DNA of 64,000 nt from Actinernus sp. WN-2022 (taxonomy: Eukaryota > Cnidaria > Anthozoa > Actiniaria > Actinernidae): assembly GCA_030867875.1 (NCBI GenBank), contig JAOWCC010001368.1, positions 1,426,001 to 1,490,000 on the forward strand. Direction: 5' to 3'. Of this stretch, positions 17,259 through 58,500 are shown in pieces (the first letter of the stretch is position 1; each line of letters begins with the position of its first letter). A program made the position numbers and the translations under genes. The notes below the pieces were generated by a model that saw nothing but the letters and a program-made list of their open reading frames with translations, ran no database searches and was not told the origin of the DNA.

Positions 17259-17339
17259 TTCCTTGAATGCCGTGTCATATAAGGACTCTCTATCACTTTC
17301 TCTTAAGCCCTGATGCTTTAGATTAGATCTACTAGCGTA

Positions 17340-17939: not shown

Positions 17940-18026
17940 TGAAACTAACATAAAACAAACAGTAATACTAGAAATTAACAATACTAGAAAGTAAATAACT
18001 GAAAATAACTTATCAATCACGAACAC

Positions 18027-29900: not shown

Positions 29901-32900
29901 GGGATGGGAGAGGGGGTAAAAATTATCACAGTTGTACATGTAGTTTTGTTTTTGTGTCAGTGTGGGTATTCGCACAGGGAGGGTGGGGGTGAAGGAATAG
30001 GGATGAGAGAGAAGGGGTAGATAGGGTAAAATTGTATCAGTTGTTGTTTTTGTGTTTAAGTGTCGGTATAGTTTGGGTGTCAAGGGGGTGGGTGAAGGGA
30101 TGGGGGGTGTGTGAAAATATCACAAATAGGATTCGGTAGGATCTGGTGTTTTTGTGTTGAAGCGGGTATTCGCACCCAGACATCAAATAGGGAGGGTGAG
30201 GGAGTAGCGATGAGAGAGGGGGTAAAAATTATCACAGTTGTACATGTAGTTTTGTTTTTGTGTCAGTTTGGGTATTCGCGCAGGAAGGGTGGGGGTGAAG
30301 GAATAGGGATGAGAGAAGGGGGTAGAGAGGGTAAAATTGTGACAGTTGTTGTTTTTGTGTTCAAGTGCCGGTATTGATATCCGGATGTCAAGCAGGAAGG
30401 GTGAGGGAATGGGGATAAGGGAGGAGGGTGGAGGGTAATATTGTTGAAGAAACCATAGGTGGAAAACTATGTGGAAAATTGAGGCATGGTGGAAATAGTT
30501 TTTGTGTTGGAGCGGGTATTCGCACCGGAATTAACCGCGAATTAACCGCGAAGTGGTCTATTTAGGGTAAAGTTTTATAGCTTATGTGGGAATTTTCATT
30601 CAATTTCGGTGACGCGATGACTTCAGCTCAGTCGTTGTGTACTCGGTCCAGTACTCTAGTCGATCGTTAGGCACGTCCAACTGTAGTCGTAGTCCGTAGT
30701 CATTAGGGACTTTAAGAAACCACGACGGCAACATCTAGGACAACGGCATAACTGCACATGAAAATGCACGCAATCGCCTACGTTTTCACCGTTCTATGCA
30801 AAAACACAACGTGAAAACCACAAATTGTACGTTTTAAAGAGAACTCGAACGTAAGAAAGTAAATCAATCCGTTTTTCGTTCGGCGTGAACGGAACTCTTA
30901 TACTAAAGTCTCATCATACTTTTCGAAAATCTAGTTATGAAAAACAATTCAAGGCGAAAAAGGGAAATAGTAGACACCAAATTTTGGGAGAAAACACTAT
31001 TCTACGTCCCGTCGTCATTGCAGTCGACTATGCCGTCCCTTCTCAATCAATCAATCAATATGTCATCCCTTCTCAAATATTAGGGACCTTACGCAACCAG
31101 GACCGCGACGGCAGTGACGACGGGACGTAAAAAAGTGTTTCCTCCATAATCTGGTGGTGTCTGTCACTATTACATGTTACGTTTCACATCCATGCAGGTC
31201 TTCGAAAAAATATGATAAGCATAAAGTCTTGCTCACGCCGAACGAAAAATGGAGTGATTTACGGTCTTACGTTTGCGTTCTCTTGTAAACGTCAACTTTG
31301 GGGTTTTCACGTTGTATTTTTCCAGACAACGGTTGAAATGTAGGCGACTGCGTGCATTTTCACGTGCAATTATTGTATTTCGTAATTATGGCTATTGTTT
31401 TAAGCTATTGTTTTATGCCGTCTTCCAAGACGTTGCCGTCCTGGGCCGGGTTGTTCAAAGCCCGATTAGTGTTAATCCTGGATTAACTCTGCACAGAACC
31501 TATTGGTTGTCATGGAAATTAACCCTGGATTAGCACTAATCAGGCTTTGAACAACCGGGCCCTGGTTGCGTAAGGTCCCTAACACAAGACCACGAATACC
31601 ATGGTCACAGATTAGACAAACGTAGACTTGAGAAGACTCGACAAAAAGCAACTTTTGGTGAAGTGTGCCGCAGTACTTACTGTTGAACTTGTAGGCTGCA
31701 GTTCGAGCTCGTAAAGCTAACGACAAGCTGTAGTTTCTCTGACGCGTATTGCACAAACTGTTTCTTGAATGACTTTTCTTTGGCGGTGTTAGTCCACCTC
31801 AGTCGCTCAATGACGTACAGTCCTCCGTATAGCCCAGTACAACACACTATCACCTTCCATCCCATTACACGCCACAACTAGGACATAAACACTACAATTA
31901 CAACTTATCATAGAATCGCAGTCACAGCTGAATCGCACTAGTACGTGAGGCCACACACTGTAAATCTACTGCCTTACTTACCAGACCACCAGCCAGCACT
32001 ACAAATGTAGTAGTACTTGAGGTGAGGTGAGGCCACACACTGTATCACTACTGTCTTACTTACCAGACCACCAGCCAGCACTACAAATGTAGCAGTACTT
32101 GAGGTGAGTGATGCCACACACTGTATCACTACTGTCTTACTTACCAGACCACCAGCCAGCACTACAAATGTAGCAGTACTTGAGGTGAGTGATGCCACAC
32201 ACTGTATCACTACTGTCTTACTTACCAGACCACCAGCCAGCACTACAAATGTAGTAGTACTTGAGGTGAGAGATGCCACACACTGTATCACTACTGTCTT
32301 ACTTACCAGACCACCAGCCAGCACTACAAATGTAGCAGTACTTGAGGTGAGTGATGCCACACACTGTATCACTACTGTCTTACTTACCAGACCACCAGCC
32401 AGCACTACAAATGTAGCAGTACTTGAGGTGAGTGATGCCACACACTGTATCACTACTGTCTTACTTACCAGACCACCAGCCAGCACTACAAATGTAGCAG
32501 TACTTGAGGTGAGTGATGCCACACACTGTATCACTACTGTCTTACTTACCAGACCACCAGCCAGCACTATAAATGTAGTAGTACTTGAGATGAGTGATGC
32601 CACACACTGTATCACTACTGTCTTACTTACCAGACCACCAGCCAGCACTACAAATGTAGCAGTACTTGAGGTGAGTGATGCCACACGCTGTATCACTACT
32701 GTCTTACTTACCAGACCACCAGCTAGCACTACAAATGTAGTAGTACTTGAGGTGAGTGATGCCACACGCTGTATCACTACTGTCTTACTTACCAGACCAC
32801 CAGCCAGCACTACAAATGTAGTACTTGAGGTGAGGTGAGGCCACACACTGTATCACTACTGTCTTACTTACCAGACCACCAGTCAGCACTACAAATGTAG

Positions 32901-34481
32901 TACTTGAGGTGAGTTGAGGCCACACACTGTATCACTACTGTCTTACTTACTAGACCACCAGCCAGCACTACAAATGTAGTAGTACTTGAGGTGAGTGAGG
33001 CCACACACTGTATCACTACTGTCTTACTTACCAGACCACCAGCCAGCACTACAAATGTAGTAGCACGTGAGGTGAGTGATGCCACACCCTGTATAACAGC
33101 TATTGTTATATCATCATCACTGTACCGTGGGATGACGTCACAACCAGCCATGGGCTGTTCTCGTTGCTTTGTGTTAACAGTCGGCACAAGACTTTCAACA
33201 TTTTTCTGGACCTGTTGATATGAAGTTAAAACATTCAAGATGAATTCAAGATTACCTTCATAACCAGTGGTGTATCAATCAGCACGGGCTTACACGTCTT
33301 TCACTTTACTAGTCTTGCCAGAAATATGTATGTTTATTTTCACACTTCATCAACCGGCAAATTAAAACAAGGCCATTGGAGACCTGATGATGTCCACCCT
33401 GACTGATTGTTCCGATTCGTCTATTACCCGGAATTTCACATATTTTACACAAAACCCGGCACTGAATCTAAATGAAACTCAAATCTGGATCCTGTACTGT
33501 ACATATATAATACATCATAAACAACATGAGTGCCCCTCCCCTCGCTCCAGGGGGCATATTACTCACATTAGCACCCAATGCCATTGCTAGGTTGGCGTTA
33601 CGAGGAGCGAGGAACTTTCTCACTAATGCCTCCCATCCCAGAGTGAAGTGGAACTGGATGTCTTCCTGGAAGTCTGCACAGAGGCTGTGAATCTCCAGTT
33701 GGTAGCAAATCTCAAAGTCGTGTCTGAATAGAAAAAAACCTGTGCTTATTAGCATCTAAATATCACATCTACATCTCATTGTGCAAATTCTCTATGAATA
33801 TATTCAAATGCGCTTCACAAGGTTATCTTTGTGATACAGCCTGCTATTGTGGTGCAATGTGCTGCCGTGCAGTACAATTACGAGTGATTGTTAGTACCTC
33901 AGAATTCCAGGCTGTTGTGTCGGGAGACAATCCCTTACTCTAGATCTTTCTCGAAATAACACAACAGATTCTGTTACATGTACGTCTCCGTTGTTTAGAT
34001 TAGAAGAGGAAGGAGGCAAGGCCAACGACTTAGATGTCCCTGCCCAAGGACGCGGCCAGCATTCAAACCCTGGACCTATAGACTGTGCTCTACCAACTGA
34101 GCTAACCAGTGAGGCAGTAAGGCATGATAAGGCATTTACAAACTTCTAGATACACTAGAACCTTATCACAGAGTAAACATGAGATAATCAGACATGTTGT
34201 TGTGTGGCCTAACCTTGGAGTTAAGGGAAGTACATCCTGTGGAGAGTCTTGTGGCATGAGCTTTTGTAGTCGGTCTAAAAAACAATGACCAAGATATTAA
34301 TGCTTATAACAGAGTAAAGGTGTAAAGCAATCTTCTTTAACTTTGGTAACTCGTGACAGTCTGGTGAGATTGATAAACTTGAGGCCGATGTGGGACCTAC
34401 GATTTTATGTCCTTATATGAGAAGATGTGAAGGTCTAACCATATGCAGTTCGAGAGCAAGATTGTTTCACAAAGGAGCTCC

Positions 34482-34520
<39 letters not shown>

Positions 34521-37500
34521 CTGGGGTTTGAACCCACAACCTCCCACACAACAGACCAGCACTTAACCACTTAACTAACCAGGAGGCAGTCATGCTTAAC
34601 AATGATACTATCATCAGTGGGTCCACACAACAGACCAGCACTTAACCACTTAACTAACCAGGAGGCAGTCATGCGTAACAATGATACTATCATCAGTGGG
34701 TCCACACAACAGACCAGCACTTAACCACTTAACTAACCAGGAGGCAGTCATGCGTAACAATGATACTATCATCAGTGGGTCCACACAACAGACCAGCACT
34801 TAACCACTTAACTAACCAGGAGGCAGTCATGCTTAACAATGATACTATCATCAGTGGGTCCACACAACAGACCAGCACTTAACCACTTAACTAACCAGGA
34901 CGCAGTCATGCTTAACAATGATACTATCATCAGTGGGTCCACACAACAGACCAGCACTTAACCACTTAACTAACCAGGAGGCAGTCATGCGTAACAATGA
35001 TACTATCATCAGTGGGTCCACACACTTGTTTCAGTAAAGGAACAGTGTGTCTAGCATCACAGAGAAGATTTTGTATGATTGGGAAAGAAAGATGGCAAGA
35101 CATTTGCTGTACCATAACCATACCGTAACACTGTTATTTGATTGGATCAGAAAGATGGGAACAATAGGGAAGCCATTTCAGTGTCTGGCATGCCATACCA
35201 GTGTCTGGCATGCCATACCGTAACTGTTATTAAGTCGCTGCCATACCCTCACAACATATTAGAAATCTGCTCTATCACATACATTATGCACTATGAGTAC
35301 CTGACATTTCTTGTTGTGCTTCTTGTATTATCTGGGCCTGGGAGGAGGAGCAACGAGTCATTAAATTTCTTCCCAGGCCTCTCTCAATGTGCTCATGAAG
35401 TTCCTGTTATAAGAAATTATATTCCCAGTCAGAATGGTCTCAGAATGGGCAGAAAAATGATCACAAATTTCCTAACTGTCTAACCTTTTTATAAGTCCTG
35501 AGGAAGCCTGGATGAGTATGGAATGGATGTTCAAAGTCATTGACCAGCACACCGAGACGACCAATCTCCTCTGTCATGGCATCGGCCACCTAATAATATA
35601 TGACAACATATGGTTTATGGCACTGTATACTGTAGCTACACTCTATACAGTGGTCTATTATTTTTACTTACTCAAATACCATAAAATACGGGTTATAAGC
35701 CCTAGGCTTATACAACTTGTCAAGGGTTTGGGGGGTGCTTAACGTTTGGAAATGTGTTAGCAGAAAACCACTTTAATGCTTTTTAACACTAGCCTTTTCA
35801 CTAGCCATCCAAAGGTTGCATTTTACTTGTATTGAAGAATGCAACGTTTTTTTCAGTCGATATAAAAGAGATAAGGACATGGTTGGGTAGAAGGGGGCTT
35901 ATATCTGGAGGGGATTATAACCAAGGGATTTTGTTACCAGACTGATGGACCTATAAGCAGTATTTTATACAGAGGTTATTAGTTGGCTATTAAAGCATCT
36001 AATGTATGGCTATGTATTTCATGAGCCATTCATATTTTGGTGAGCCTTTAGGTGAAAAACCTTGCATACTTGCTCGAAAAATGGGATTTACCATATACAT
36101 GTATGGTGATGGGAAGCCATTTGAATGTAACTACCCAAAATACAACCTCATATACATATCTTCTTACCTGCTGTTCAACTCTAGTCGAGATGTGTTTAAT
36201 CTTCTCCTTGCACTCATTAGTACAATAGTCCAGCTGCTCCTTTACAAACTCCAACCTGTCTTCACAATCTTTCTTGGTTTTGACAAGCTTTTTCCTAGAA
36301 AATAAAATAAGAGATTCTTATTATATAATTCTGCCAAGAATGCACAAAATATGCACAAGAGTGCACCAAATATGGGATGGTATTACATGTAGTTACAGTC
36401 AAATGGCTTCCCAACACCACAGGAATATTTGAAGGGCTGTGTGCAAAAAGGGTGCAAGTGTTTCCTGATCAGATTCTAAATTCTCCTTTAATTTCTTTGT
36501 TTTCTAAGGGAGAATTTAGAATGTGATCAAGAGTCACTTATGCCCTTTTTGCACACAGCCCTTCATTTGGTTTGACCAATCGAATATATTTTCAAAATAA
36601 TTACATGTTACATGTATATTTTTCAAAGATGTAAACAAATCCCATTTCTCAAGCAAGCATTCAAGGTTTTTGGTTATTATGAAAAGAACATTTCATTTCT
36701 TGGCAGAAAACAACTTATTTGCATTGTAAGCAGTGGTGTAGGAAGTGGGGGGGGGGGGGGGGGGGGGAGGGTTGTCTCCATCCCCACCCCCTCTGCCCAG
36801 TCCCTAAAGAGAGATTGACAGAAGTCGTCAATAAAAATGAATTCTGGAATTCATCATCTCAGAATTCACCCCCTCCCCCCTCCCCAGTTTCCCTTCAATT
36901 TTCATAACCTCCCTATACCCCTGATTGTAAGCAACCAATACGGATGTGTATTTTTAACTCATCATTTGTATTTTGGCTCATCAAAATACCAGTGACTCTT
37001 AAAAATACACAGCCATATTATCAGTAGATGCTAGCTGACTAATAATCTCTTTATATAGTTACCAAACTCATTAATAATTCATGTGACAAAAACAAAGGAA
37101 ATCAATGTTAAATGTGAAGTTTGTAAATCTGATACATAAACTTTTGCTTTGATTTTCTCGGCCAAAATAGGTCATATTGCCAAAATATAGACATTAATTC
37201 TGATAAGTCATATACAGAATTTGTGTCTTTATTTTATCAGCTTTACAAACTCTCGCATATGGCTCACATTTGTAAATCCGATTAACATCGGCACTCATTG
37301 AATTTGTAATAATGTATTACATACAAAGTAACACAGAGATTTTATTCTCCAAAGACACTCGGCTACTTGATTGAAGTAATAAAACAGTGATCACATTTGT
37401 TCAGAAATTAAAAGCAGTAAATACATTGATTTCTAAGTATGCCCTACCTGTGTTCATAGGCAGAGCCAGCAATCTGTTCCAGCATAGAGAGCACTGCTTT

Positions 37501-40500: not shown

Positions 40501-43500
40501 CAATTTCTTTGTTTTCTAAGGGAGAATTTAGAATGTGATCAAGAGTTACTTTTTTTATAAGCATTAGAGAGTACAGGTATATGTATTTATATAATAAAAT
40601 AAGTAATTATTAAATGGGCCGCGTCAGGCAAAAAGGGCCCGGACGACATAATATGTAAATGTCTTTTGAAATTGTACCATGTTTTTTATACTTGTGGTGC
40701 AATTGCAATATGCATCGCGAGCCCCACATTGTGCTACTAACAAGTAGTGTTGATTTCATGAAATTGACAAGTGAAATCGAAGACAAAATTTACGATATTT
40801 TTACAGAAGGGTGTGATCACAATTTTAGCAGACGCAAATCATTCCCTATCATCAGACGATTGTTTCAAAGTGTAACTTGTACTATTGCTAAAATCATTTT
40901 TTGAGCTACGGGGAGCAGAACGACTGCAGAAAAGACATTTATTTGCCAAAAAGTGATCATCTGGTTCATCTTATTAATTTTTTACTCTTTAATGCCAGCA
41001 GGTATAAATGAATGTCATACATCAAATCATCCCCTATGACAGGATTCCTAATTTTTGTGGTCATATTTGTAATCGGGCCCTCGCATCTAAATCACGTAAA
41101 TTTTACTCCTGATTTTTGTTGTCAATTTCTTGAAACTGACATTTATTGTTAGGAATGAAATGTAGCGCTTCTCGTCAAGAATACAATACAATCTTCAACC
41201 TGTTATTAGGAACACCGTTGTAGGAATTATTTAACTTGTATGTCGTCCGGGCCCTTTTTGCCTGACGCGGCCCAAATAATAATTGATTGAAAAGAAGTTA
41301 TGCCTCATAGCTAAATAAACCGAAAGGTTTTCTTATAGAATAGTTTAATTTCGTGTATGTACATTATATCTTTTTATATCATATATATACTTGACATTGT
41401 AAATTTGACATATATATTATTAGTTACACTACATTCAAACTTGTAAATGCATTGAGGCATGCATAATGCATATAAGAACTGTTATTATTATTATTATGTT
41501 ATAGCTGCTAGCCTTTTTAAAAGAACTGGGCAGAACCTGCATTGCTTTATAAGGGAGTGCTGGGATTATTCAGTTATGGTGGTTGTGATCTCACTCAAAA
41601 GCTGCATTTAGAGTAAGTGAAGTAGACTGTGGAACTAGCTCATTAGAACCACTCCACCGCATATATTATGTGCTTTGTGTTGATCTTAAGATTTATAGGA
41701 ATTGTATTATACTGTGCGTGGGGAAGAAAACTTAGTGAAACCTTTTAAGAAAATCAGGACGTTGGTAATATTACTTGTTTCTTAAAGTATATTATAAGGT
41801 CAGATACTTTTTTATTGATTTGGAATCTATGAATGGTCTAGATATGAATTCCTAATTTTGTTTAAAATTGACCTCATCTTCTCCCTGTAAGGAGGCTTTA
41901 AAGTTCTCAAAGTTCCCACACCCATTTCACTTGACCGTGTAGTATGTATAGGACACAAATCCACCATACAATACACACAGCCTGTACTTTTACTACAAAA
42001 AACTTAAAATTCAATGTAAAACTGTGGTAGGAAGGTTTTAAACCTTAAACATAAGGGCAACTCGTGGATGGTCAGTGAGCTATTTTGGCATATAATATTA
42101 AAAATCATGTTACCAATGATGTCATTGTTACGTCATCACCACTAAGTGATTCGTGGGAAAACAATATCTTTAAACTGACAGTCTGGCATTAGAAATGAGG
42201 GAGATATGGGCATGTACTCAAAATCATGTGACCGATGACATCATCATTACGTCATCATCACTAGGTGCTTGATAGGGACCTACTACCATGTCTGCCAAGT
42301 TTGAGCATACTGGCATTAGATATAAGCGAGATATGGGCATGTACTTAAAATCATGTGACCGATGACTTCAATGTTACGTCATCACCACTAAGTGATTGAT
42401 AGGGACCCACTACCATGTCTGTCCTAGCAGGTTTGAAGTGTCTGGCATTAGAAGGGCACCGTCAATACATCTTCTCCAGCATGATCAAATCTTTCAATTC
42501 TTGGATGCGTTGCATAAACATCCGTAAATATATCCTCTGAAAATCAAAAGTCATTCGGAAAGCCAATGGCAAGTCATTGATGTGCACAGAAAAAAACGAA
42601 GTACACACCATAAAACAATGAATAAATTAGCTTGACCTGCCTAAGCCCAATAACTCATTCTGCGCTTGCGCACATCCACAAGTTAAAAACAAGCCAGTAC
42701 AATTGATGTTGCCAATATACATTGTACGTCTGTCATTAATGTGAATAGGGGATGCATGTGTTTTCCTGTCATGTTAGGTTCGCAAGGGATTGTGCTCCAA
42801 TATACAGCTGCCATCTTTTTCAGTACGGTGGATTCAAGTGAGGATTGTCACCATTCAGTGCAGTCTGGTCAATAATAGCAATTATTGCTATACATTTGCT
42901 CTAGTTCACAATATTATTATTGGCCTTTTGCAGGAAAGTAGTATATGTGGAGTCAAAATGATACCCGTTTTTCTGAATTTTGTTAACGTAGTGGAGAGCT
43001 TCGTTCAGACCTCAGCTCTCCCCTACGTTAACAAAATTCACGAAAACGGTTATAATTTTTCCTCCACATATACTACTGAAATCATAAGAATTACAACGAT
43101 ACCATTCTTTATCTATTTATCCATTCGATTTTCGTAGACCATGAACGAGAAAAAAAAGCATGGATAGAAACCGTTATTTCGTCTCTCTTCATTCTTTTTG
43201 CCTTACTGCCGACATTATTGCACGAACGAGGCAAAAAAAAAAAGGGAAAAAAAAAAATGAATAGAGACTGTCGTTTCGTCTCTCTTCATTTTTTTTCCTT
43301 TTTTTTTTTTTACTGCCATTCGAAAGCCCTTAGCGAACCCTCTACGTCTCCATGAGTCTTACGGTACTTCAATTCTGCCAGTACTTTCGAGAAGCGATTT
43401 TCTTTTACTAAGTTCACGTCGTAGTGGTGCACTACACGTTGTACAAAGTCTGTAGCTAGTTCGACAATCACGATCGCATTTACGACATGGATATTCGAAA

Positions 43501-46500
43501 GCCCTTAGCGAGCCCTCTACGTTTTTATGAGTCTTATGGTCCTTCAATTCTTCCAATACTTTCGAGAAGCGATTCTTGATTTTGCGTTTCTCTCCACTAA
43601 GTTCACGTTGGCGTCGTGCACCACACGTTGTACAAAGTCCGTAACTAGTTCTACAACCACTACCGCATTTAGAACATGGACCGAATGGGGTGGCTCCTCT
43701 TTGTATCTGATAGTTGTGTTGAGCACAATATTCTGACACTTTGGAAGGTTTCCTCACGCACTTCGTGTCCTTACCACGCATCAACCAAACGCAAGTTACT
43801 ATCTCGGCCATCGTGTGATATGACTTCGTACTGTTTATGTTTAATTGATAATATTTTGGGAGAGTTCTAACCAAAACAGCTGATTCGTGACGAGGACATC
43901 CGCCAATATATACTCATTTAAGAATTTAGTTTAAGACCATGAGAAGAAAAAGATTCGATAGTGAAAAAAACCAAATACCAAAACTGGTATCACCAGAACC
44001 TCTCTAGGAACCTTTCACCTTTTTCCTTCCTTTACCATCTTTTCGTTCCTAGAGAGGTTTTTATTTATTTGCCGGGCCCGGCTTTGACGGTATTTGTTCT
44101 ACTGTATTCATTCTACCGTATTTGTTCTACTGTATTCATTCTACTGTATTTGTTCTACTGTTGTTTGGATCCTGTCCTAACTGGTTGAGACACAACCGGC
44201 ACCCGTGGGTCCCATTTAAGATCCCTTGAGCTTCACCCATGCACCCGACCCAGGATTGACATTATTCCTACTTCTGCCACATGACAGACGCGCTACGACT
44301 TGTGTGATGTGGTGGAGCTTTTTCCATCACACAAGCCGATCTACCACACATGGTCCGTAGGATTCGAACCCTAGGTATATGAGCAGCTCCACCTTTTCAC
44401 TCATATACCTAGCGCAGAACCTTTAGACCATGTGTGCTAGACACTATTTTTGATGATAAAATACTCTACTTATGTCTTAAGCACCTGTCGTATGTTAATT
44501 AGCGCCGTTCACGCGTTGGTTCGAAATTTGCATACAAACTGCAAAACAACACGGTAATTTATACGATGTTTTTAGTGAATTTAAAATAGACTCCGCGATG
44601 GTTTCTTTCATAGGAGACGTTGATTCTTATCCCACTAGACTGCCAAGCTTTGCTCTCATTTCCTTTCGGATCTCCGAGCGAAGTTGTTCTACGTTTTTTG
44701 ACCCACTAGACTGCCTATTTTTTTGTCGTATTTCGAGCTTGAGTGATTCGTATTTCGATCTTTCATCGATAACGCTTCCGAACTCGGCTTCTGAAATATT
44801 ACCATCGGCTAGAGCCTTTGAGACTTTGACTTCCACGGAATTGGCCTTAGCCTTTGCCAACATAACGGTCTTTTCGTGCTTCGAGACGCGAATACCAAGT
44901 TTCTTACTTGCAATAGACATCGAGGCCGAAATGACGGCACAAACAAACCCGAGGCTTCCTAATGAAATACCCACAGGTATCCCGATCCCCGTAAACGTCA
45001 AGCCCAACGCCATAGCGGATAATGCACCACTCAAGCTACCTGTGGCCACAGCAACCCCGTGAACAATACCACGCGCTCGGGCATATTTCTTACGAACGAC
45101 TTCGTAGTGCTTTGCCTGCCGTTCGAGTTCAGCAAGTGTGTCACATACTTTTTGTAGCCGAAAGCTATCTCCAGACAAAACAGTTTCAGATGAACGTAGA
45201 TTGGTCCTTTCCTGTAAGTCGAGTCACCTCACCGTTCAGAGCTTTGATAACCATTGGTAAACGAACTACCCATTCTCTACTACGCACCTCTGAGCCTTCC
45301 GAAGTAAGTACCATCTCTTGTGCATATTGGTATCCAAACAATCTCTCAGCTAATGTTCTATTTGCTCGTTCGACAAAACTTTGTGCCCTATGATTACCAG
45401 CTTCACCTCGTTGAATTCTAGTACCACGCAGTTCTAAGGTTTCGGACATACGACCCATGAATTCTCTACCAGGATCGACCTGCAATAACTTTGGCCATTC
45501 GAGGGGACTACGCTCGTAAATTCGTTCAAAGGCCGCCGCCACTTCACCACTATCTTTCGATGCCAGAGGTTCAGCCTCTTTATATCTAGAAGCCACATCT
45601 ATTACCACCAAAGCATACTTATATAGTTTCCTTCCACGTCCAGGGCGATCATGAGGTAGAAATATCAAATCAGCTTGATGGACCTCATTTGGTTTCGATA
45701 CGGTCCAATGAGGTCGTGGAATATGTCGTGGGGGTGGTAAGTATATTTGCCATATAGCTTGTTTCTCCAACCAACTCTTGGCCAAGTCTTCTGATACCTT
45801 CGATGCCGCCGATAGTTTACCAATTGCGGAGTAGCCTTTCCAGTATCCTTCGGGGCCATAGAAGATGTTCGCAAGTTTAGCATCCATCTATATCTATACA
45901 TTCTAGCTTTCAACATGAGACGAAAAAAAAAAAAAAGGAATAAGAACTTATCCACCCAGTCCTTATTCCTCTTTTTTCTTTTTTTTTTTTAGATCCACAA
46001 CCACCTACCAACTACGTCTACTTCTGCGATAGCATCTACGCTGGCGCTAGGCATAAACGTCGAGTTGAGTAGTCGCGTGCTTCTTTGGTGGTCGTTGGAC
46101 TACGGCAATATCTACATCCAAGAGATATGAAATCCCCATTCCACTCATACAAACACTGCTAGCATCGCAAATGCCGTCGTGTATAGAACCTGGTAGAATG
46201 AGTCTACTTATATTATTGATGTTGACGATGTTGGAATTTTCGTCGACAAGGTCTTCGTATATAGTGTGGCCCTCGGAAGCATGTCCCTTACTCTTGTCGA
46301 AGAATCGACCGTTGGACGTTCCTGTCTTATTGTCGCATTTCATGCGCATTCTCATTAGGGGGTTGGCCAAACGCTTACCCGCGTTACTTGTGGCATTGGC
46401 AGAAACAGCTCGTTGGATCATCGGAACCACCTTGGTGTTTGGGACGATGGTGGCATCCTTTTCGGGTGGACTGCGTTTTCGTAGATTGATCATGCAGAGC

Positions 46501-49500
46501 TTCTTATCTTCTACGAGTTTACTCACCTCGCAATCAAAGGCCCAATCTAGGTATTCGACTAGTTTGAAAGTAGGACTTAGCTTGTCGTCGGAAGGCAGAT
46601 CCAACTCTCCATCGTCGCGTTTCTTAATCGTGATTCCATCGTCCTCCGTATGTACGATGGCGTTCCATTTTTGGAACTGGAGGCAAGGATGTCTATCTCG
46701 CTTTTTATACTTGGTTCCATAGGCGAGATTCAATCGTGCGATGTCCTCTTCGTCGTATGGACATATTTGTCCCACATGTTTTTCACCTTCGAACCGAAAG
46801 ACCGCGGGCCTAGGACCGTTTCCAATGTCGAAACTCACGGATACGTATTTACATCCGTTGGGGCCGCTTCTGGCGTTGGCCCAAGCAAATGATACAACTG
46901 ACCCGTAAGGTCGGCCATCTTTTTTTGCCCTTTGGAACGCTTCGACCACATCGCTTGCATTGAAAACTTGGCTAGCCATCGTCTTTAATATATATACATG
47001 TGTCTTTATCTAATAGGGTTGTTGGATTCGTTTTTTTTACAACCCCGTTGTGGTGGTCTTCTTTCAGCTTTTCCTCGGAATTAGTCTTGTGATTTTTAAA
47101 GCAACCGACTAACGACGTATCCTATAGCGAGCGTCCCACCACCTACGATTGCCAATTCCGTAGTTCTCTGCGAACTCGAAGGTTTGTAGTAGTCGGAAAA
47201 GTGAGGCTTCTTCATGTCCATGCGGTGCAGCCCCACGTGTACTGTATTGTATAGCACAAGGGCGCGGTCCGTATTGGTTAGATCTTTGTCAGCGTAGTAT
47301 TTCGTACGTTCCTGCTCTTTAACCCACTTGGATAGTTTTTCTTGTTGTTTTTCGTAAGTAGCCATGTCAGCCTTGTATTTCTCAAGGGCTCTATCATGCC
47401 TTTTGATCTCTATATTAGTCTCCTCTGGGTCTCTTCCAGAAATATATCGGTCGAGGTATTTAGCACCAAGGCTTGCTGCCGCAAAGGCAATCGCTACGAT
47501 AATCGTTCCCATTGTTTACGAACTTTTAGGTATGATCCCGTTGTCTTCGAGATACTTTTTGGCGGCAATGCTACCAGCCAATACGGCCGTCCACTTCACG
47601 TAATTCAAGATGCTTGATGAAGGATCGCCAAGCATAGACTCCTTTGTCGCCTTTTTTACGATCCAACCAATACCAGTTGCTATTCCAGCCAATGTGGCGG
47701 CATCGATTACCGTTTCTACCACTTTGCTTTTTTCTGCCACTTTGCCTTTTTCTGCCATCGAACGTATCTGTATTGTCGATATGTTCAAATGTTATTTTCC
47801 ATGGAAGGCAACTTTTTGCTTCTAACTTCGTGTATTTCTTCAGAATGAGTGTTGGGTGTCGTAGCGTTGCGGCCCTTATACTGATAGTACAGCCCAACTA
47901 ACGCGATGCCTACGCCAATGGCCGATAGTGTAGTGTTGGCAGACACTTTATCGTACCAGCTTCCGTCGTCCCGAACTTCTGGTTCCTTTTCGTGCTCACT
48001 TTCACGACTTAATGCCTCTCTAGCGCGGCGATTGCTTTCTGCCAGTGCTTTCCCAGCAGCAACGCGCTTTGGATCTTTGGTCTTTTTTTCAGGCGCAGTC
48101 TTCGGCGGATCTGCAGTTATCCGATCTTGTTGTTCCTCCATCGTTCATGTCAGTAGACTTTAAGTCTTCAATAGGTTGACTGCTTGGTGTACTAGGTGGA
48201 ACTATGTGGTCAGCTACATGGAACAAGGCACTAGCTAGAGCCACAAAGCGACCTGCTTTAAGAGACAACAAGGCGGCCACAGCAGATATCTCGTTGCGAA
48301 CTAGGTGGTCTTCTTGTAGATCTAGGAGAAGTGCTTGTTCGCTGTCTAGTCGGACTACGTAACCAACTGCACGAGTTGCTAGTCGCAGTGCTCCGTCTAC
48401 TAGACAACCTGTTATTTGCTTTGCCACTACGGCCTGGTACCTACTGTGTAGACGCATAACGTCTTTATCAGGCAGTCTAGATACATCTCCTATAGAGAAG
48501 TCCCGACCTAGATATTCTTTTGTTGTGCCCATTGCGGCTAGAATCGAGAGCGCCTCCCTACGATCCTTAACATCCTCTGATTTGGATGGATGTTCCAGTA
48601 CGACCGGCGGACAAACGACGGCGCACTCGCCTAACAGTTCTTTGGTTTCTTCATCCATGGTTGAAGTATGCTTTGGGTGCGGGAATCTCTAATACTACCT
48701 CGAAAGGATGGCGGAGACAGAAACATGTGCGAGCGAACTTGTGGGCCTTGAGCTCCGAGGTCAACATTTTCCTCTCATCCACCTTCAACCCACCACCGTA
48801 GTCCTCAAATAGTGCTTTGGCATCAAGAGCTGACGCCGTATGAAAGGCCACGACCACCGCCACGTTTTCTCGAAAAGGTTTGCATATGCTTGTCAACTGT
48901 TGAGTTAACACCCAAATAGAAATGCCTATGTGACGAGCGGAAAAGGCCATCTCCACGAGCTTATCGGTTCTCAGCTTTACATCCTTCGATGCGGCGCAAT
49001 CGTCGAGTATCAAAAGAGTATTCGTACCTGCCCAAAAGGTGGAACAAACTCGTAGCGCGGCATTGATGGCATCTTGTGAGGGGCACATCACGAAGAAGTG
49101 AGGATCTAGATGGGCGAATCCACGATAGGTAGTGTTGTGGGCATACGTGGGGCATATGAGTACTACGTAGTCAAACTTACCACGAAATGCTCCACGAAGC
49201 TGCTCTACGAGAAGGGCCGTTTTTCCACAATTCGTTGGTCCCACTATGAGAGCGTTGAATGGAATTTCAGTTACTAAAGCGTCCATGCTAGTACGATACG
49301 TTTTCCAGTGCTCCGTTCAATATCGTGATCTGAGCATCGGCAAGTACGAAGATGTGCATGTTCACGATTCCACTGCCTCCAGTCCTATGGATGCGGATCT
49401 GGAGGTTCTTTCCACTGCCGGTTTGATTCAAGCCATTGCCATGGACAACTGGATCATTTACTGTGCGACAGTCAACCAGGATGGCGAATTTATTATTGTA

Positions 49501-52500
49501 GAACTTGATCGGGGTCATAGACGTTTTGCCAGCGCCGAACCATCCATTGGCGGCCTCCCAAAAGTCTGATGGTAGCATGCCTCCAGGAAAGATCCTGTTT
49601 GGTCTTCCATTGATATCGATCTCTACCTTCGTGATTCCTGGATAGTCAAACGCCTCGCTGTTTCGTGTGCCGTGGGCATGTTGTGCCACGAAGAGGAGGA
49701 GCAGTCCAGTAAAGGACAACCTTGGAACGTCGACTTGCTGGGATATCAGAGTGTCGGACGCTTTGTTGATAGGTACGGTTTTGAAGTGAACAGCGTGCCT
49801 GAACAGGAAGACGGCGCCACTGACATATTCGTCTTTCGCTTGCTTGGCGATAATTTCACTCTCAACAACTTCGTACTCTAGCTGGATGTTGCTTAGCTTG
49901 TATGTACCTATCTTGGTAGTGTCTGATCCTACCACCACGTCCGTAGCAGGTGATAGAGTCAACTCGAGCGAAATGGTGTTGCGAAGAGCGAAGGGATAAA
50001 GAGCTCCATGTTGCGTCAGGATGTCCACATCTAGTGGGATTCGGTATTTCGAACCATACACGGCTAGGAGCAAGTTTTCTCCAGTATCCGAAGTGCCTTT
50101 GTCACCAGCATTCGAGCGTAGCTTGTTCGTGTTCTCTGTTTGAATACCTTGTCCCACGCGCGCATCTCGCTCTATAGTTGGCAAATAGAGATCGGAATAT
50201 GTCTGTAGAAGATCTGGTCGTTCAATGTCTTCTATGGTTTCAGCGCCTATTTTGAGAACTCTACGTGAGACCAGACAACGCCCGACATTAGCCACCACGC
50301 GATTGTTAACATGTCCACCAGACAACGTAAGGTCAGCCACGAGTGCGAGACTACCTGGAACGAGGACGATGTTTTCCCCTAGTATTGGTATTTTCACATA
50401 GAGAGTCTCTCCTGGATTGGCTTCCGATGGAGTGAAGGTGATTCTATCTACGTTGTGTAGAGCTTTCAATCCCTGAGGCTCTCTGTGCGATTTTGCAGGA
50501 ACCAACGTCGACGGAATCATGTTGAATATATGGACATATATGGTTATTGTTCAACATGGCTGAAAATGCAGACTTCGATCCTTTGACTGAGGAAGGTCAA
50601 GCCGACATAGAAAATCTTTCTGCCAAAGAATGGCATGAGCTTGGTCCAGGTAAGAATGAAGACCGAAGTACTTGGTGGGATAGAGTTAAGGTCAGAATAG
50701 GAGAAAGATCCAAAAGCTTTCGGGATAAGCTTTGGAGTGGACGGCATAAATGGGGGTACAGTCCACATGAGTACATCAAATTGGTGAATCTAGGTGATCC
50801 AGATGCAGTACCAAGCGGCAATACCGCGGAAACATCGTTCACTGAGGGGGAACAGATACTAGCTGAAAAAGCCAAGCGACGCGATGAAGCCTGGGATAGG
50901 ATTAGTAGAAGATTTCCGAATGTAGACACTACCAAGTTCACTACTACCTTGGATACGTATGACAAGGTCGTGGTGCAACTGAACAAAAGTAATTCCAAAT
51001 ACTACAATCTGTACGGCGCCAAAGGTAATGTTAATGGGAAATTGCCTAAGACGATCACAGACGCTCTAGGGCCTCCCGCAGATATGATTGTTAGCGAAGG
51101 AGAAGCTGAGATCGACCAACTTAAGATAGAAAGAGCTAAGGAAATGAAAAACGTGAAATCATCCAAGCAGGGGTCGACAGAACATACGGCAGCAAAGGAA
51201 GAAGTGATGAATATAGACGACCAAATACAGGAGATCGAGTCAAATATTGAAAGAATCGAAGAGCGTATGTCCATGCGAGACCGCGTGAAGGCCATCTTCA
51301 AAAAGTACGGTGTTGGAGTGCTTGGAATTGCGATTGCGGCAGGCACCGTGATTGGCGTCGTGGCTTCCATGCTATCTAAGGGGCTTGCTAATGTTGCCAG
51401 TGGGGTCGGCAAGGCGTTGAAAGGTCTAGGAAAGAAGCTAGGGCAGATTCTACCTGGAATGGTTGGGGCAATTGCTAGCTTTTTGTTTCGCACGGCTGGC
51501 GAGGTATTAGGATTCTTAGCGAAGAACATCTGGATGTTGATTGTAGCTGTGGTGGTGATCGTAATAGAGCGATTTAAGTCAGCGAAATAGCATCCATGAG
51601 GCTCCCGCCGCAATGGCAACCATCAGCCCCAAATTGATCTCGTGCTTTGTCATAACGGCATCGGTACTACGAGGTTGCGTTACTTGTGGGATAGGCGGCT
51701 TCACCGCAACGACATCTTGATGTGTTACTTGTGGGATAGGCGGCTTCACCGCAACGACATCTTGATGTGGTAGATCTTTCTTTCGTGAACTACCTTCCAT
51801 ACGTGGTGGTTTCGGGGACTTTTCTTTATAGTTGATACGGTCATTTATTCCAAAGTGGATGTTAGGTGTGGAGGCCATTTGTAGTTCGTTGTTATAACCT
51901 GGTATGCTCTCATCGTTAATAATCATACGGCTGGGTATTAACAAACAGTCCTTAGCAACTGCAAGGTCGAGACGAACGCGCGTTAGATGCAAAGCGTTTT
52001 GATATCGTACAAGGCTATCTACCTTCTTTTCTGTGATGACCTCTTCCAACTTTACACCACAATCGGCCTGAACATTGTGGGATAAGGTCGTTGTCCCTAC
52101 GATTGAACTGCGCAAAGAAGCCTGGGATCCTAGAACGCAATATACGTAGACCATTGCAGATAAGTTTATTCTGGCTAGCCCGTCCTTCGACAATCCGTGA
52201 CCAGTTTGTGGAACGAACCAATTGCGTTGATTCTTTACCGCATCGTTACGAATGAACTTTAACGGAAATTCGAAGTTAGGGCGACGACTCTCCTCAGGAA
52301 ACTTGAAATCTCCCCCAGGCCACTTCGAATCGTATGAAGTGTTGTGCGTCCCCCATTTCTCTTGAGCATTCACCAGCCCTCCATGGATGTATACGTATAC
52401 GTCTCCTAATCCACCATTGGCCCCTCGGCGCAGGGCAAAGTCAACTTTATCGACTCCAAACTCTATCCTGAGCCTGTCATAAGCGACGGAACTCCATGGA

Positions 52501-55500
52501 GCATTGTTGTCCTTATCGAAGACCGAATCTCTGGGAAGTGGGACCCCCAATTCGAACAGTAATCGCCTCATTGTGTAGTACACATGGAAGCGGTAAAAGC
52601 TCCTGACGTTGTCGATGATTGGTGCCTCATCGGAAAGATGGTCGTCAAACGACACCCCACAGCCTGCCGTTGCACACCAAAGGACGAAGCATAGCTGTTG
52701 TTGCCAATGTCTCATTGGTGGAGCATTTAGCCACTCGTTTGCTTGCTTTACGGTGTAGAAAACTTGGTCCGGCTCTTGAAAGATATCTCGCGGCGTCATC
52801 GTGAAGAACTGATCCTTTGCTACGTAGATCTTGAGTGTTCGTAGGATAGGGACTATGTCTTTTGGGTCGTCCCCCCATGGAACGGCTGGAACTGGATACT
52901 TCTCTTTTGTCTTTCTGAATGGAGATGGGAAACCTCCACTTATACCGCGTAGTACAGAATCGAGTCGTTTTTGAATAGCCTCAGGTAGATTCGAGAAATC
53001 ATCACCGTAGACCACATAGCTATGATTCCCATCTCGAAACCAAATGCTTGTCGAATATTTGCCTGGACCATCTATGTCTGTAGAGGCATGAAACTGGCGA
53101 AAATCCGCGTGTGGGTATTCTTTCTTGAACTTTGTCAACAAATCGGTATTCAGTTTGGCAATCCTGGCGTTTTCATCTACAAGGAGCGCTGTCTGCTCAG
53201 CTTTCGAAAGCCTTGGACCACCCCTGGCAATCTCCACCATGTCCTCAGCAGATAGATCATCATCTTCGTCTGGTAAAACTAGAGGCATCGTAACTATTGA
53301 AGTTATTGCAAGTATGACATATAAAGTTTATGTCTTTAATATACGATGGTGATTTTAAATGTCACCACCACCTCGGCTGACCATACGGTCTACTTCGACG
53401 ATCCAATTCTTATACGGAATATTTCGATAGTTGAGGTCACTTTCGAGAACAGTTGGTGGAATCTAGAGACAAAGGCTACGTTCGAGTGGGATACCGGGGG
53501 TTTGCTGCTCCCATACGAACTTGATTCGGGTTCTTATAATATAAATACGATCGTGCCCCTCTTCAAACCTGCGGTGGTGGTTGGCGTTATAAGCTTCATA
53601 GACAAAGCCAGTAAAAGGAATTGGATCCTAAGGGTAAAGAAACCGATCAAGTTCAGTAAGAATCTCTGCGAACTATTGGGTATCGAAGGAAACGAAGAGG
53701 TGGGGGGAAACGTATCGTTAAAGGTGGGGGACCACGACCTGGTGTTCAAAGATATCCACACAATGTATGTCCACTGCGATGTGGTGGATTCCAGCTTTTC
53801 AATTCTAGATGGAAAACGATCGCAAGTCCTAGCGAACTTAAAAGTACGAGGCGTCTGGTTTAAGGAAATAACCTATTCTATGATGCCCCCACTACCTGTC
53901 CGAGCTCTAGGTACAACACGAAACAGCCTTCGTCTGACGATTCGTGATGAGAAAGGCAACGTGGTAGACTTCCGTGGTCGACCCATACGATACGTATTGA
54001 AGATTGAGTAAGCCATACGTATAATATGCGATGGCAAGCGATTCGATTCAAACAATTCCAACGGCGCCGATCTATCCCAATCTACGTTCATCTGAAACTG
54101 TTTTGTCTGGAGATAGCTTTCGGCTACAAAAAGTATGTGACACACTTGCTGAACTCGAACGGCAGGCAAAGCACTACGAAGTCGTTCGTAAGAAATATGC
54201 CCGAGCGCGTGGTATTGTTCACGGGGTTGCTGTGGCCACAGGTAGCTTGAGTGGTGCATTATCCGCTATGGCGTTGGGCTTGACGTTTACGGGGATCGGG
54301 ATACCTGTGGGTATTTCATTAGGAAGCCTCGGGTTTGTTTGTGCCGTCATTTCGGCCTCGATGTCTATTGCAAGTAAGAAACTTGGTATTCGCGTCTCGA
54401 AGCACGAAAAGACCGTTATGTTGGCAAAGGCTAAGGCCAATTCCGTGGAAGTCAAAGTCTCAAAGGCTCTAGCCGATGGTAATATTTCAGAAGCCGAGTT
54501 CGGAAGCGTTATCGATGAAAGATCGAAATACGAATCACTCAAGCTCGAAATACGACAAAAAAATAGGCAGTCTAGTGGGTCAAAAAACGTAGAACAACTT
54601 CGCTCGGAGATCCGAAAGGAAATGAGAGCAAAGCTTGGCAGTCTAGTGGGATAAGAATCAACGTCTCCTATGAAAGAAACCATCGCGGAGTCTATTTTAA
54701 ATTCACTAAAAACATCGTATAAATTACCGTGTTGTTTTGCAGTTTGTATGCAAATTTCGAACCAACGCGTGAACGGCGCTAATTAACATACGACAGGTGC
54801 TTAAGACATAAGTAGAGTATTTTATCATCAAAAATAGTGTCTAGCACACATGGTCTAAAGGTTCTGCGCTAGGTATATGAGTGAAAAGGTGGAGCTGCTC
54901 ATATACCTAGGGTTCGAATCCTACGGACCATGTGTGGTAGATCGGCTTGTGTGATGGAAAAAGCTCCACCACATCACACAAGTCGTAGCGCGTCTGTCAT
55001 GTGGCAGAAGTAGGAATAATGTCAATCCTGGGTCGGGTGCATGGGTGAAGCTCAAGGGATCTTAAATGGGACCCACGGGTGCCGGTTGTGTCTCAACCAG
55101 TTAGGACAGGATCCAAACAACAGTAGAACAAATACAGTAGAATGAATACAGTAGAACAAATACGGTAGAATGAATACAGTAGAACAAATACCGTCAAAGC
55201 CGGGCCCGGCAAATAAATAAAAACCTCTCTAGGAACGAAAAGATGGTAAAGGAAGGAAAAAGGTGAAAGGTTCCTAGAGAGGTTCTGGTGATACCAGTTT
55301 TGGTATTTGGTTTTTTTCACTATCGAATCTTTTTCTTCTCATGGTCTTAAACTAAATTCTTAAATGAGTATATATTGGTGGATGTCCTCGTCATGAATCA
55401 GCTGTTTTGGTTAGAACTCTCCCAAAATATTATCAATTAAACATAAACAGTACGAAGTCATATCACACGATGGCCGAGATAGTAACTTGCGTTTGGTTGA

Positions 55501-58500
55501 TGCGTGGTAAGGACACGAAGTGCGTGAGGAAACCTTCCAAAGTGTCAGAATATTGTGCTCAACACAACTATCAGATACAAAGAGGAGCCACCCCATTCGG
55601 TCCATGTTCTAAATGCGGTAGTGGTTGTAGAACTAGTTACGGACTTTGTACAACGTGTGGTGCACGACGCCAACGTGAACTTAGTGGAGAGAAACGCAAA
55701 ATCAAGAATCGCTTCTCGAAAGTATTGGAAGAATTGAAGGACCATAAGACTCATAAAAACGTAGAGGGCTCGCTAAGGGCTTTCGAATATCCATGTCGTA
55801 AATGCGATCGTGATTGTCGAACTAGCTACAGACTTTGTACAACGTGTAGTGCACCACTACGACGTGAACTTAGTAAAAGAAAATCGCTTCTCGAAAGTAC
55901 TGGCAGAATTGAAGTACCGTAAGACTCATGGAGACGTAGAGGGTTCGCTAAGGGCTTTCGAATGGCAGTAAAAAAAAAAAAGGAAAAAAAATGAAGAGAG
56001 ACGAAACGACAGTCTCTATTCATTTTTTTTTTTCCCTTTTTTTTTTTGCCTCGTTCGTGCAATAATGTCGGCAGTAAGGCAAAAAGAATGAAGAGAGACG
56101 AAATAACGGTTTCTATCCATGCTTTTTTTTCTCGTTCATGGTCTACGAAAATCGAATGGATAAATAGATAAAGAATGGTATCGTTGTAATTCTTATGATT
56201 TCAGTAGTATATGTGGAGGAAAAATTATAACCGTTTTCGTGAATTTTGTTAACGTAGGGGAGAGCTGAGGTCTGAACGAAGCTCTCCACTACGTTAACAA
56301 AATTCAGAAAAACGGGTATCATTTTGACTCCACATATACTACTAGGAATGCAATCACATGGTTAACTACTGCCACCAGGACAACAACAAATCTGAGTTCA
56401 TTTATTTAAAGGCCTGTTTATAAATGCTACATGTATTTTTCACCTTCAATCGATTGTCTATCTTTCTAAAACAGCATTTAGAAGTTTGAAAGCCTTTCTC
56501 ATGGGAACACAAGCACGATTCATTGGTCACTTCAAGTGCTACCCTCGGTTCCTGATTTTACATGACTACACAGTCTCGGTCATTACCAAACTGGGCAATT
56601 GGCAACTTTGAGAACTTTAAAGCCTCATTAAATGGTGAAGATAAAGACCATACATATATATGTGTAGATACCAAATTAATAAAAAAGTAACTAACCAAGC
56701 ATACATATTACACTTTAATAGATGTAAGCCTCAAACCTCTATCCAAAACTGTCCAAATTAAAGTATTTTTTGTCGGTTCTTCTCTGATCTAACCAGGTTT
56801 TTTTCTATACCACTTGACTATCTTATATGGTTTACCTACCAATTCCATCATTTCAACATCAGGTTCCCCAGCCGATGCATCCCATCGGTTGTTAAGAATA
56901 AAAATATTGGGTCGTGATAATCTTTGGTTGACTTTGTGGAAGAAGTTTTTCTCCTGTAGATTTGAAACAAAACAACTCTTACAGCCAAGAAATGTTTACT
57001 CAACTTACTTTCAAATACAAGTTCATACACACATCCACATGCTGTTCAGCAAAAAGTGTAAAGGGAAAGGTCTTCATTTATATAGCACAAATTCTATATG
57101 GATATACATGTATTCAAATGTGCTTCATTTTATGATTCCACTGACAGATCTTGGCCGACTGTTGGCTGACACTTGGCAAACTGTCGACCAAGTTTGAAAA
57201 AGGACCAGCCACTATAGCAGCAACAGGTAGGTTTCCAACTATTGTGAGTCAATGTTCACGGTTTGAGGTAACCATACTACATATTTTTTGCCTAACAGTT
57301 TGCTGATATGTAGCCAACACTTTGCCATCAGTCAGATGACTGTCAGTAACAGTCGACCAATGTGTCGATTGGATTATAAAGTATCAACAGTACACTTTTC
57401 TCTGGCTGCAATTCACCACCGAAAATTCTTGTTGCTGTTCATCACAGGAAATAATTTGAGTGCACTCACTGTAACCATAAGAGTTGACTCTGCATTGCAC
57501 ACCAGTACAAACACATCAGCATCCAGACAATGCTCGTCAATCCAGGTGTCAAGATCTGGACTTACATCAATACCAGGGCTGAAAAAATATGCTGTGTTAT
57601 GTTCATGTACTATAAGCAGCAGTCTCAAGACATGTGCAATGTCATCATCTAGTTTATAAGCATGTAAACTATGTCTTATATGAGGGACTATGTCACCTGG
57701 ATTTTTCTAATTTTCGGCCATATAGTTACATAGAATTGTCTTACATCTATTACCGGTATACGAAAACCACTCCTAGTAAACTAAGTAATACACAGTGATA
57801 AAAGTGGTTGTTGTTGTGATGTTAATATTTCAAGAGAGACCAAGCCAGATTAGAATGATAAGTTAATACCATAGACACCAGTTTATAAAACTTGACTGAT
57901 TGGCTCAATTAACCATAAGTTGGAGTTCTCGTTGGCTAAGTAGCCCTGGTTACAGTAGTTACACAGTAACACTTCCAGGGCTTTGAAAACAAGCCAACAG
58001 CTGCTGGTTATTTTCTCTTCATCAACAGACAATATTGAACTTTTGACTTTGGCTCTGAGTTCTGTCACAGATGCCTACTTTCCAACAAATGTATGTGGAC
58101 GTCATACTGGAAAATATTTTGAATGCCGTGACTTCAAGTGATAATAATGTGTAACTATCCAAGGTTGATGACGTTTTTCACTGACTGCCAATCTAAGACC
58201 AATAAAACGAATACAGGAGAAAAGTGATTGTCCAAAAAGGTAAAATAATGAGGAGCACAGTCTGTTACCTGTCGACCAATACAACATCTTCAGAGAGCAT
58301 TTTGCATCTGAAATCAGTCAAAGATTAAAGGTGAGGTGTTTCAAAGAGCTCAAATTGCATTTGCCCTATGGGCTCAAGCAATTTTGATACTCTTTTTAAT
58401 CCCTCCCCCCCCCCCCCCCCAAAAAAAAAAGAACTGCTGGTAAACCCCCTTCTTTTATGAATGCCAAAAAAAATGAAAAATGTTGTTTTAGAATCTTGAT

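What the first reader, a model, noticed from the sequence alone, without database searches (positions are those of the whole stretch)
42937..56343. Polinton-like element lacking DNA polymerase B
It has capsid, penton, ATPase and integrase genes but no PolB and no adenovirus-type protease. TIRs are intact and ORFs are open. Either it needs another element or the host for replication, or one of its unknown proteins (310 aa or 569 aa) supplies an unrecognised replication function. With terminal hairpins it may represent a distinct replication strategy.
Basis: partly seen in the sequence, partly recalled or inferred. Interest (0 to 1): 0.85.

Follow-up and report, generated by a model that had tools for sequence, protein, structure and literature searches.

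The report
Viral transposon without its own polymerase
A virus-like transposon sits complete from end to end in this DNA, with a giant-virus-type capsid gene and a DNA-binding protein like one of African swine fever virus, but without a DNA polymerase, perhaps because one of its ends was overwritten by a copy of the other.

Summary
42937-56343 is one insertion with 2.27-kb terminal inverted repeats (TIRs), a 5-bp target duplication (AGGAA) and an 8.9-kb core that is 95.7% coding; no polymerase or protease is recognised. Each tip is a 141-nt imperfect palindrome (57 of 64 pairs, 13-nt loop) framed by AGTAGT/ACTACT, the commonest vertebrate Maverick end motif.

The 569-aa protein has no fold match and a hydrophobic tail; virion membrane protein is likelier than replicase. 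The decisive search, for PolB-bearing relatives in the same genome, could not be run (16 of 16 requests unanswered).

The parts
42932..42936 (.). Left target-site duplication AGGAA (5 bp)
56344..56348 (.). Right target-site duplication AGGAA (5 bp)
42937..45204 (+). Left TIR, 2268 bp; read here as an inverted copy of the right end
54077..56343 (-). Right TIR, 2267 bp; read here as the original (the 207-aa gene is complete across its inner boundary)
42937..43077 (+). Left terminal imperfect palindrome, 64-nt arms (57 of 64 paired), 13-nt loop, framed by AGTAGT...ACTACT
56203..56343 (-). Right terminal imperfect palindrome, the same sequence inverted
43144..43204 (+). Subterminal palindrome-like repeat 1 (14 of 18 arm positions paired)
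43241..43301 (+). Subterminal palindrome 2 (17 of 18 arm positions paired); inverted copies of both near 55979-56136
44087..44161 (+). Array of alternating 14-bp repeats; inverted copy at 55120-55191
43359..43811 (-). Cys-rich (13 Cys), internally repeated, zinc-ribbon-like protein, about 150 aa from its first ATG, left TIR copy
   Evidence: no Pfam match
55470..55922 (+). The same Cys-rich protein, right TIR copy
44627..45178 (-). N-terminally cut copy (183 aa) of the 207-aa protein
54031..54654 (+). 207-aa protein with hydrophobic segments; starts 46 bp inside the core and is complete only on this side
45186..45887 (-). rve integrase, 233 aa; residues 228-233 and the stop are encoded by the TIR; no chromodomain match
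46047..46979 (-). 310-aa homologue of the ssDNA-binding protein CP312R of African swine fever virus
47096..47512 (-). 138-aa protein, hydrophobic segments at both ends
47516..47788 (-). 90-aa small protein (TTG as first start)
47785..48141 (-). 118-aa protein, one hydrophobic segment
48089..48658 (-). 189-aa protein, unknown
48651..49286 (-). A32-type packaging ATPase, 211 aa
   Evidence: Pox_A32 E 1.5e-10; terminase large subunit PHROG E 1.1e-9
49288..50520 (-). [quoted passage not shown]
50547..51590 (+). 347-aa protein, charged first part and two hydrophobic C-terminal segments; probable membrane-active virion protein
   Evidence: function inferred
51579..53288 (-). 569-aa protein of a conserved family, hydrophobic C-terminal tail, no fold match; probable virion membrane protein
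   Evidence: function inferred
53346..54011 (+). 221-aa protein, candidate penton/minor capsid protein (unproven)
   Evidence: no Pfam match; best PDB E 1.1

Best explanation
An integrated, non-autonomous copy of a Maverick/meldvirus-type DNA virus whose capsid protein is of giant-virus type. The integrase inserted a linear double-stranded genome by its (AGT)2//(ACT)2 tips (shown: tips and 5-bp duplication; the act is inferred). At some point the left end was replaced by an inverted copy of the right end, as in poxvirus ITR expansions, making 2.27-kb TIRs and removing the integrase C-terminus and everything to its left (replacement: read from the two junctions; a PolB among the lost genes: inferred). 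Capsid protein, ATPase and membrane proteins would build a particle, and the CP312R-type protein would coat single strands during replication (inferred), but the polymerase must come from elsewhere: a sister element with PolB, a co-infecting virus, or the host.
For: TIRs and target duplication. The inner TIR boundary falls inside the integrase ORF (residues 228-233 TIR-encoded, no chromodomain match), and the left copy of the 207-aa gene lacks its start while the right copy is whole. TIRs of 2.27 kb against 46-1447 bp in intact vertebrate Mavericks, whose commonest end motif is the same (section 7 read). Adintovirus integrases carry a C-terminal chromodomain (section 16 read). MVA-CR19 shows the same kind of ITR expansion, by duplication of the right terminus with loss on the left (passages). 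No polymerase match in 13 of 13 proteins and a 95.7% coding core. CP312R homology E 1.1e-50 over residues 1-300. Capsid fold.
Against: No relative with PolB was seen; the own-genome search did not complete (16 of 16 requests). In vertebrate Mavericks PolB lies in the other module from the integrase, so the lost segment need not have held PolB. The target duplication is 5 bp, not the 6 bp of Mavericks. Capsid, SSB and 569-aa genes are uninterrupted and align with relatives over 91-100% of their length for the best hits, as in a lineage that still replicates. The terminal palindromes are not explained by this reading.
Confidence: 0.5

Rival explanations
1. A polymerase-less lineage with hairpin telomeres: the 141-nt terminal palindromes are telomeres that self-prime after nicking (as in poxviruses or parvoviruses), the CP312R-type protein coats displaced strands, and a host or helper polymerase copies the DNA. 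Expanded TIRs are then a normal outcome of that cycle.
For: Imperfect palindromes at the exact tips of both ends, z -15.8, 57 of 64 pairs; subterminal palindromes and 14-bp repeats; an SSB of a family from a virus with hairpin ends (the hairpin ends of that virus are recalled); ITR expansion as in MVA (passages); poxvirus ends are likewise incompletely paired (passages); the inverted repeats of bidnaviruses, which have PolB, do not form parvovirus-type hairpins (passage).
Against: The tips carry the (AGT)2//(ACT)2 motif of PolB-bearing Mavericks. No nickase, resolvase or helicase match in Pfam for 13 of 13 proteins. Both palindromes lie in the same orientation, so no flip/flop is seen in this one copy. 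Large palindromes also occur elsewhere in this DNA: the next best has 54 of 64 pairs at 36427-36568.
Confidence: 0.25
2. A virophage-like satellite of an asfarvirus-like or other giant virus of the same host, which supplies the polymerase; the capsid, ATPase and SSB genes reflect that association.
For: Capsid fold nearest to giant viruses and a CP312R-type SSB; 3 of the 7 other CP312R relatives found sit on contigs of 41, 94 and 153 kb, as giant-virus genes would.
Against: No helper is known here and the host is not identified. No relative was confirmed in 8 of 8 IMG/VR scans. Sputnik and mavirus capsid proteins are farther in structure than giant-virus ones.
Confidence: 0.15
3. One of the unknown proteins (569, 347, 221, 207, 189 aa) is an unrecognised replicase.
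For: The 569-aa family is conserved (54 relatives, 10 invariant columns) and well modelled (pLDDT 81.9) but matches no known fold. The 347-aa protein has weak PHROG matches, among them one to an SbcC-like subunit of a palindrome-specific endonuclease (E 0.0037), but also to tail tape-measure proteins (E 2.5e-4), as coiled coils often do.
Against: The 569-aa protein ends in a hydrophobic tail, as do 29 of 45 alignment rows at a Kyte-Doolittle mean of 1.2 over 17 residues; the stricter cut (1.6 over 19) did not flag it. It lies upstream of the capsid and ATPase genes on the same strand, with the 347-aa gene opposite in between. effectively tested only residues 27-117 of the model, so the fold search is incomplete.
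Confidence: 0.07
4. Assembly artefact: the inverted repeat arose from a foldback chimera.
For: Very high identity of the two arms.
Against: Two substitutions and one indel between the arms, different flanks, and a shared 5-bp target duplication.
Confidence: 0.03

Closest known systems
Maverick/Polinton elements
   Same: rve integrase, packaging ATPase, double jelly-roll capsid protein, TIRs, (AGT)2//(ACT)2 tips as in vertebrate Mavericks
   Different: no PolB, no recognised adenovirus-type protease, capsid fold nearest giant viruses, integrase reading outward into the left TIR, TIRs of 2.27 kb, 5-bp target duplication, terminal palindromes, CP312R-type SSB
Meldviruses of Buck et al. 2024 (PMC11071296), e.g. 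Meld23486
   Different: Meld23486 carries a Beta-class PolB; 'hairpin' and 'CP312R' have 0 occurrences in the held text
Polinton-like viruses (Yutin et al. 2015, PMC4642659; Krupovic et al. 2024, PMC11071308)
   Same: MCP and ATPase, no protease (passages), mostly no pPolB (passage)
   Different: with one exception the 2015 set lacks rve integrase; they encode other replication proteins instead, none recognised here
African swine fever virus and other Nucleocytoviricota
   Same: CP312R-family SSB, A32-type ATPase, double jelly-roll capsid protein
   Different: 13.4-kb integrated element with integrase; no polymerase, helicase or transcription genes recognised
Poxvirus and parvovirus hairpin telomeres
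   Same: imperfect terminal palindromes at the ends of inverted repeats
   Different: no nickase or resolvase recognised; tip motif is Maverick-type; sequences were not compared

Membership tests
Maverick/Polinton | protein-primed PolB | tested here: not met
   no Pfam match in 13 of 13 proteins; core 95.7% coding
Maverick/Polinton | rve integrase | tested here: met
   Pfam rve E 2.3e-9; C-terminus cut by the TIR
Maverick/Polinton | adenovirus-type protease | tested here: inconclusive
   no Pfam match in 13 of 13 proteins at E 0.1, but proteins of suitable size (189, 207, 221 aa) were not modelled
Maverick/Polinton | packaging ATPase | tested here: met
   Pox_A32 E 1.5e-10
Maverick/Polinton | double jelly-roll MCP | tested here: met
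[quoted passage not shown]
   221-aa candidate without match; not modelled
Maverick/Polinton | TIRs with AGT-type tips and 6-bp target duplication | tested here: inconclusive
   AGTAGT tips present; duplication is 5 bp
Adintovirus | PolB with OTU-like domain, integrase with C-terminal chromodomain | tested here: not met
   neither matched; definition; in this copy the integrase C-terminus is cut off
Polinton-like virus (PLV) | PgVV-like MCP | not tested
   no PgVV sequence was compared
Polinton-like virus (PLV) | no rve integrase (one exception known) | tested here: not met
   integrase present; definition
Nucleocytoviricota | giant-virus-type MCP | tested here: met
Nucleocytoviricota | family B polymerase, D5-type helicase-primase, transcription genes | tested here: not met
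   no Pfam match in 13 of 13 proteins
CP312R family (310-aa protein) | full-length sequence homology | tested here: met
   E 1.1e-50, residues 1-300 against 1-283
CP312R family (310-aa protein) | residues named for ssDNA contact (Y46, K94, R98, R194, K196, R257) | tested here: met
   5 of 6 identical by eye (Y45, K92, R96, R212, K214); the R257 position is Ser; residue list from a passage of PMC9963768
CP312R family (310-aa protein) | binds ssDNA | not testable with these tools
   needs a binding assay
Hairpin-telomere replicons (pox/parvo) | terminal imperfect palindrome | tested here: met
Hairpin-telomere replicons (pox/parvo) | nickase or resolvase gene | tested here: inconclusive
   no Pfam match in 13 of 13 proteins; several unknown proteins not modelled

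The most novel reading that the evidence does not exclude
A Maverick-like integrating virus, probably of an animal, built round a giant-virus-type capsid protein, that has given up protein-primed replication for hairpin telomeres plus an asfarvirus-type ssDNA-binding protein, and borrows its polymerase from the host or from an asfar-like helper virus. It would be a living intermediate between integrating Polinton-type elements and hairpin-ended giant viruses.
Probability: 0.2. Interest if true: 0.85.

Novelty: new variant of a known kind. Interest (0 to 1): 0.58.

Why it matters
How Polinton-type elements and giant viruses are related, and how replication modules are swapped between them, is an open question. 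One element that joins an rve integrase and Maverick tips to a giant-virus-type capsid protein, an asfarvirus-type SSB and terminal palindromes is concrete material for it. If relatives share the terminal palindromes and lack PolB, a switch from protein-primed to hairpin replication becomes testable. If relatives carry PolB, this is a clear case of a virus-type ITR expansion that made a non-autonomous element.

Tried and rejected

Literature: of 62 papers holding at least 3 of CP312R, polinton, maverick, virophage, adintovirus, meldvirus, the 15 listed hold CP312R 0 times; the other 47 were not shown. 3 papers hold CP312R with 'single-stranded DNA'. SSB + NCLDV + gp2.5 + African swine fever virus: 0 papers. 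So I saw no report of CP312R in a Polinton-type element in these searches, which cover open-licence papers only. Searches were seen as listings. Starrett 2021 was not held.

Parts used: the capsid alignment took 42 of the 120 relatives listed (893 found), the 569-aa alignment 44 of 54, the 310-aa alignment 7 of 7. PHROGs was run on 10 of the 13 proteins. The protein search works by shared 5-residue words, and no row is named as an asfarvirus, so 7 relatives is a lower bound. The tree of 43 capsid rows puts this protein alone on a long branch (1.13-1.17), so its place in that family is unsure. The hydropathy scan also flagged the capsid protein, the SSB and the 221-aa protein, so it is a weak sign of membrane proteins.
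Full report
WHAT IS THERE. The element runs from 42937 to 56343. Its TIRs are 42937-45204 and 54077-56343, alike except for two substitutions and one base in a poly-T run. The flanks repeat AGGAA directly outside both ends. The core between the TIRs is 8872 bp, and 95.7% of it lies in the ORFs listed here. It holds 10 stop-to-stop frames of 180 aa or more, where 200 first-order Markov sequences had a mean of 0.095 and a maximum of 1. This is a real insertion with long open genes.

GENES. Minus strand, reading left: 569-aa protein, 410-aa capsid protein, 211-aa ATPase, 189-, 118-, 90- and 138-aa proteins, 310-aa protein, integrase. Plus strand: 347-, 221- and 207-aa proteins and a Cys-rich protein; the Cys-rich protein and a cut copy of the 207-aa protein recur in the left TIR. 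Among the 13 distinct proteins only the integrase (rve, E 2.3e-9) and the ATPase (Pox_A32, E 1.5e-10) pass Pfam's own cut-offs. Below the cut-offs there are scattered weak matches, for example DUF2207_C in the 347-aa protein (E 2.4e-4). No polymerase, helicase, primase or adenovirus-type protease appears. Several small proteins have hydrophobic segments, as expected of a virion with an inner membrane (inference; the same scan also flags the capsid protein and the SSB).

310-aa PROTEIN. It matches CP312R of African swine fever virus over its whole length (E 1.1e-50 and 1.8e-50 for two solved structures). CP312R is described as ssDNA-binding (PMC12172490, a table row; PMC9963768, passages, with OB-fold contacts). 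Five of the six residues named there for ssDNA contact are identical here; the sixth (R257) is Ser (by eye). Seven relatives were found among 5.8 billion clustered proteins, the nearest 41-42% identical, against 893 for the capsid protein. Within the limits of that word-based search, the SSB is the rare part of this element.

ENDS. Each end is a 141-nt imperfect palindrome, 57 of 64 arm positions paired round a 13-nt loop, -49.2 kcal/mol against -9.47 +/- 2.51 in 200 shuffles. The next best palindrome of this size in the window has 54 of 64 pairs (36427-36568), so such palindromes also occur elsewhere in this DNA; what is special is the position exactly at both tips. The palindrome is framed by AGTAGT...ACTACT, and this tip is the commonest vertebrate Maverick end motif (PMC8097293, section 7). 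Further in lie two 61-nt palindrome-like repeats and 14-bp tandem repeats.

TIR EXPANSION. The inner TIR boundary at 45204 lies inside the integrase ORF: residues 228-233 and the stop come from TIR sequence. On the right the same TIR sequence continues a 207-aa ORF that starts 46 bp inside the core; on the left that ORF lacks its start. So the right end is the original, and the left end is an inverted copy that replaced the former left end (inference from the two junctions). Intact vertebrate Mavericks have TIRs of 46-1447 bp. Adintovirus integrases end in a chromodomain; none is matched here. MVA-CR19 is a documented ITR expansion by duplication of one terminus with loss at the other (PMC11680203, passages). 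Whether the replacement came before or after insertion cannot be told from one copy.

READING. The plainest account is a non-autonomous derivative of a Maverick/meldvirus-type element: one end was overwritten and genes were lost there. That PolB was among them is a guess; in vertebrate Mavericks PolB sits in the other module from the integrase, though this element's layout differs. The main rival is a polymerase-less lineage with hairpin telomeres. Its strong points are the palindromes at the exact tips and the SSB; its weak points are the Maverick-type tip and the lack of any recognised nickase, helicase or resolvase.

COMPARISON. By defining genes it is not a complete Polinton, adintovirus, PLV or giant virus (see membership test). 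Nearest in kind are the meldviruses of Buck et al. (PMC11071296; section 16 and passages read): genomes that join PolB and integrase to poxvirus- or giant-virus-like virion proteins. This element shares that mix but lacks PolB and adds the CP312R-type SSB and terminal palindromes; 'hairpin' and 'CP312R' have 0 occurrences in that text.

LIMITS. The one search that would settle the question, the window's own assembly, was unavailable throughout. Host unknown. Penton unconfirmed; a divergent protease not excluded. One copy only.

Protease and nickase are now 'inconclusive' and no longer 'not met'; the PBCV-1 range, the BFVD row counts, the weak PHROG matches, the missed hydropathy call and the limits of the protein search are now told.

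Noticed in passing
window 13285-18026 (-): Three long ORFs in a row (790, 534 and 228 aa) without any Pfam match at E 0.1; look like one repeat-type host or transposon gene.
   Followed up: partly
window 23000-31000: Very strong G-over-C skew (0.36-0.63 per 2-kb step) in a tract whose minus strand encodes recurring peptide repeats.
   Followed up: no
window 31974-33238: Tandem array whose minus strand keeps long open frames of a near-identical repeated peptide of about 27 residues.
   Followed up: no
window 36427-36568: A second large palindrome (54 of 64 pairs, 14-nt spacer) outside the element, perhaps a foldback or MITE-type element.
   Followed up: no
window 42096-42421: 127-bp and related tandem repeats directly left of the insertion.
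   Followed up: no
window 51676-51765: Near-perfect 45-bp direct duplication (98% identical) inside the 569-aa gene, in its low-confidence linker; a recent in-frame repeat.
   Followed up: no
window 43318-43680 and 55601-55963: The Cys-rich TIR gene and its downstream edge are internally repeated (85-nt copies 85% and 82-nt copies 90% identical), with paired Cys motifs; possible DNA-binding protein.
   Followed up: no
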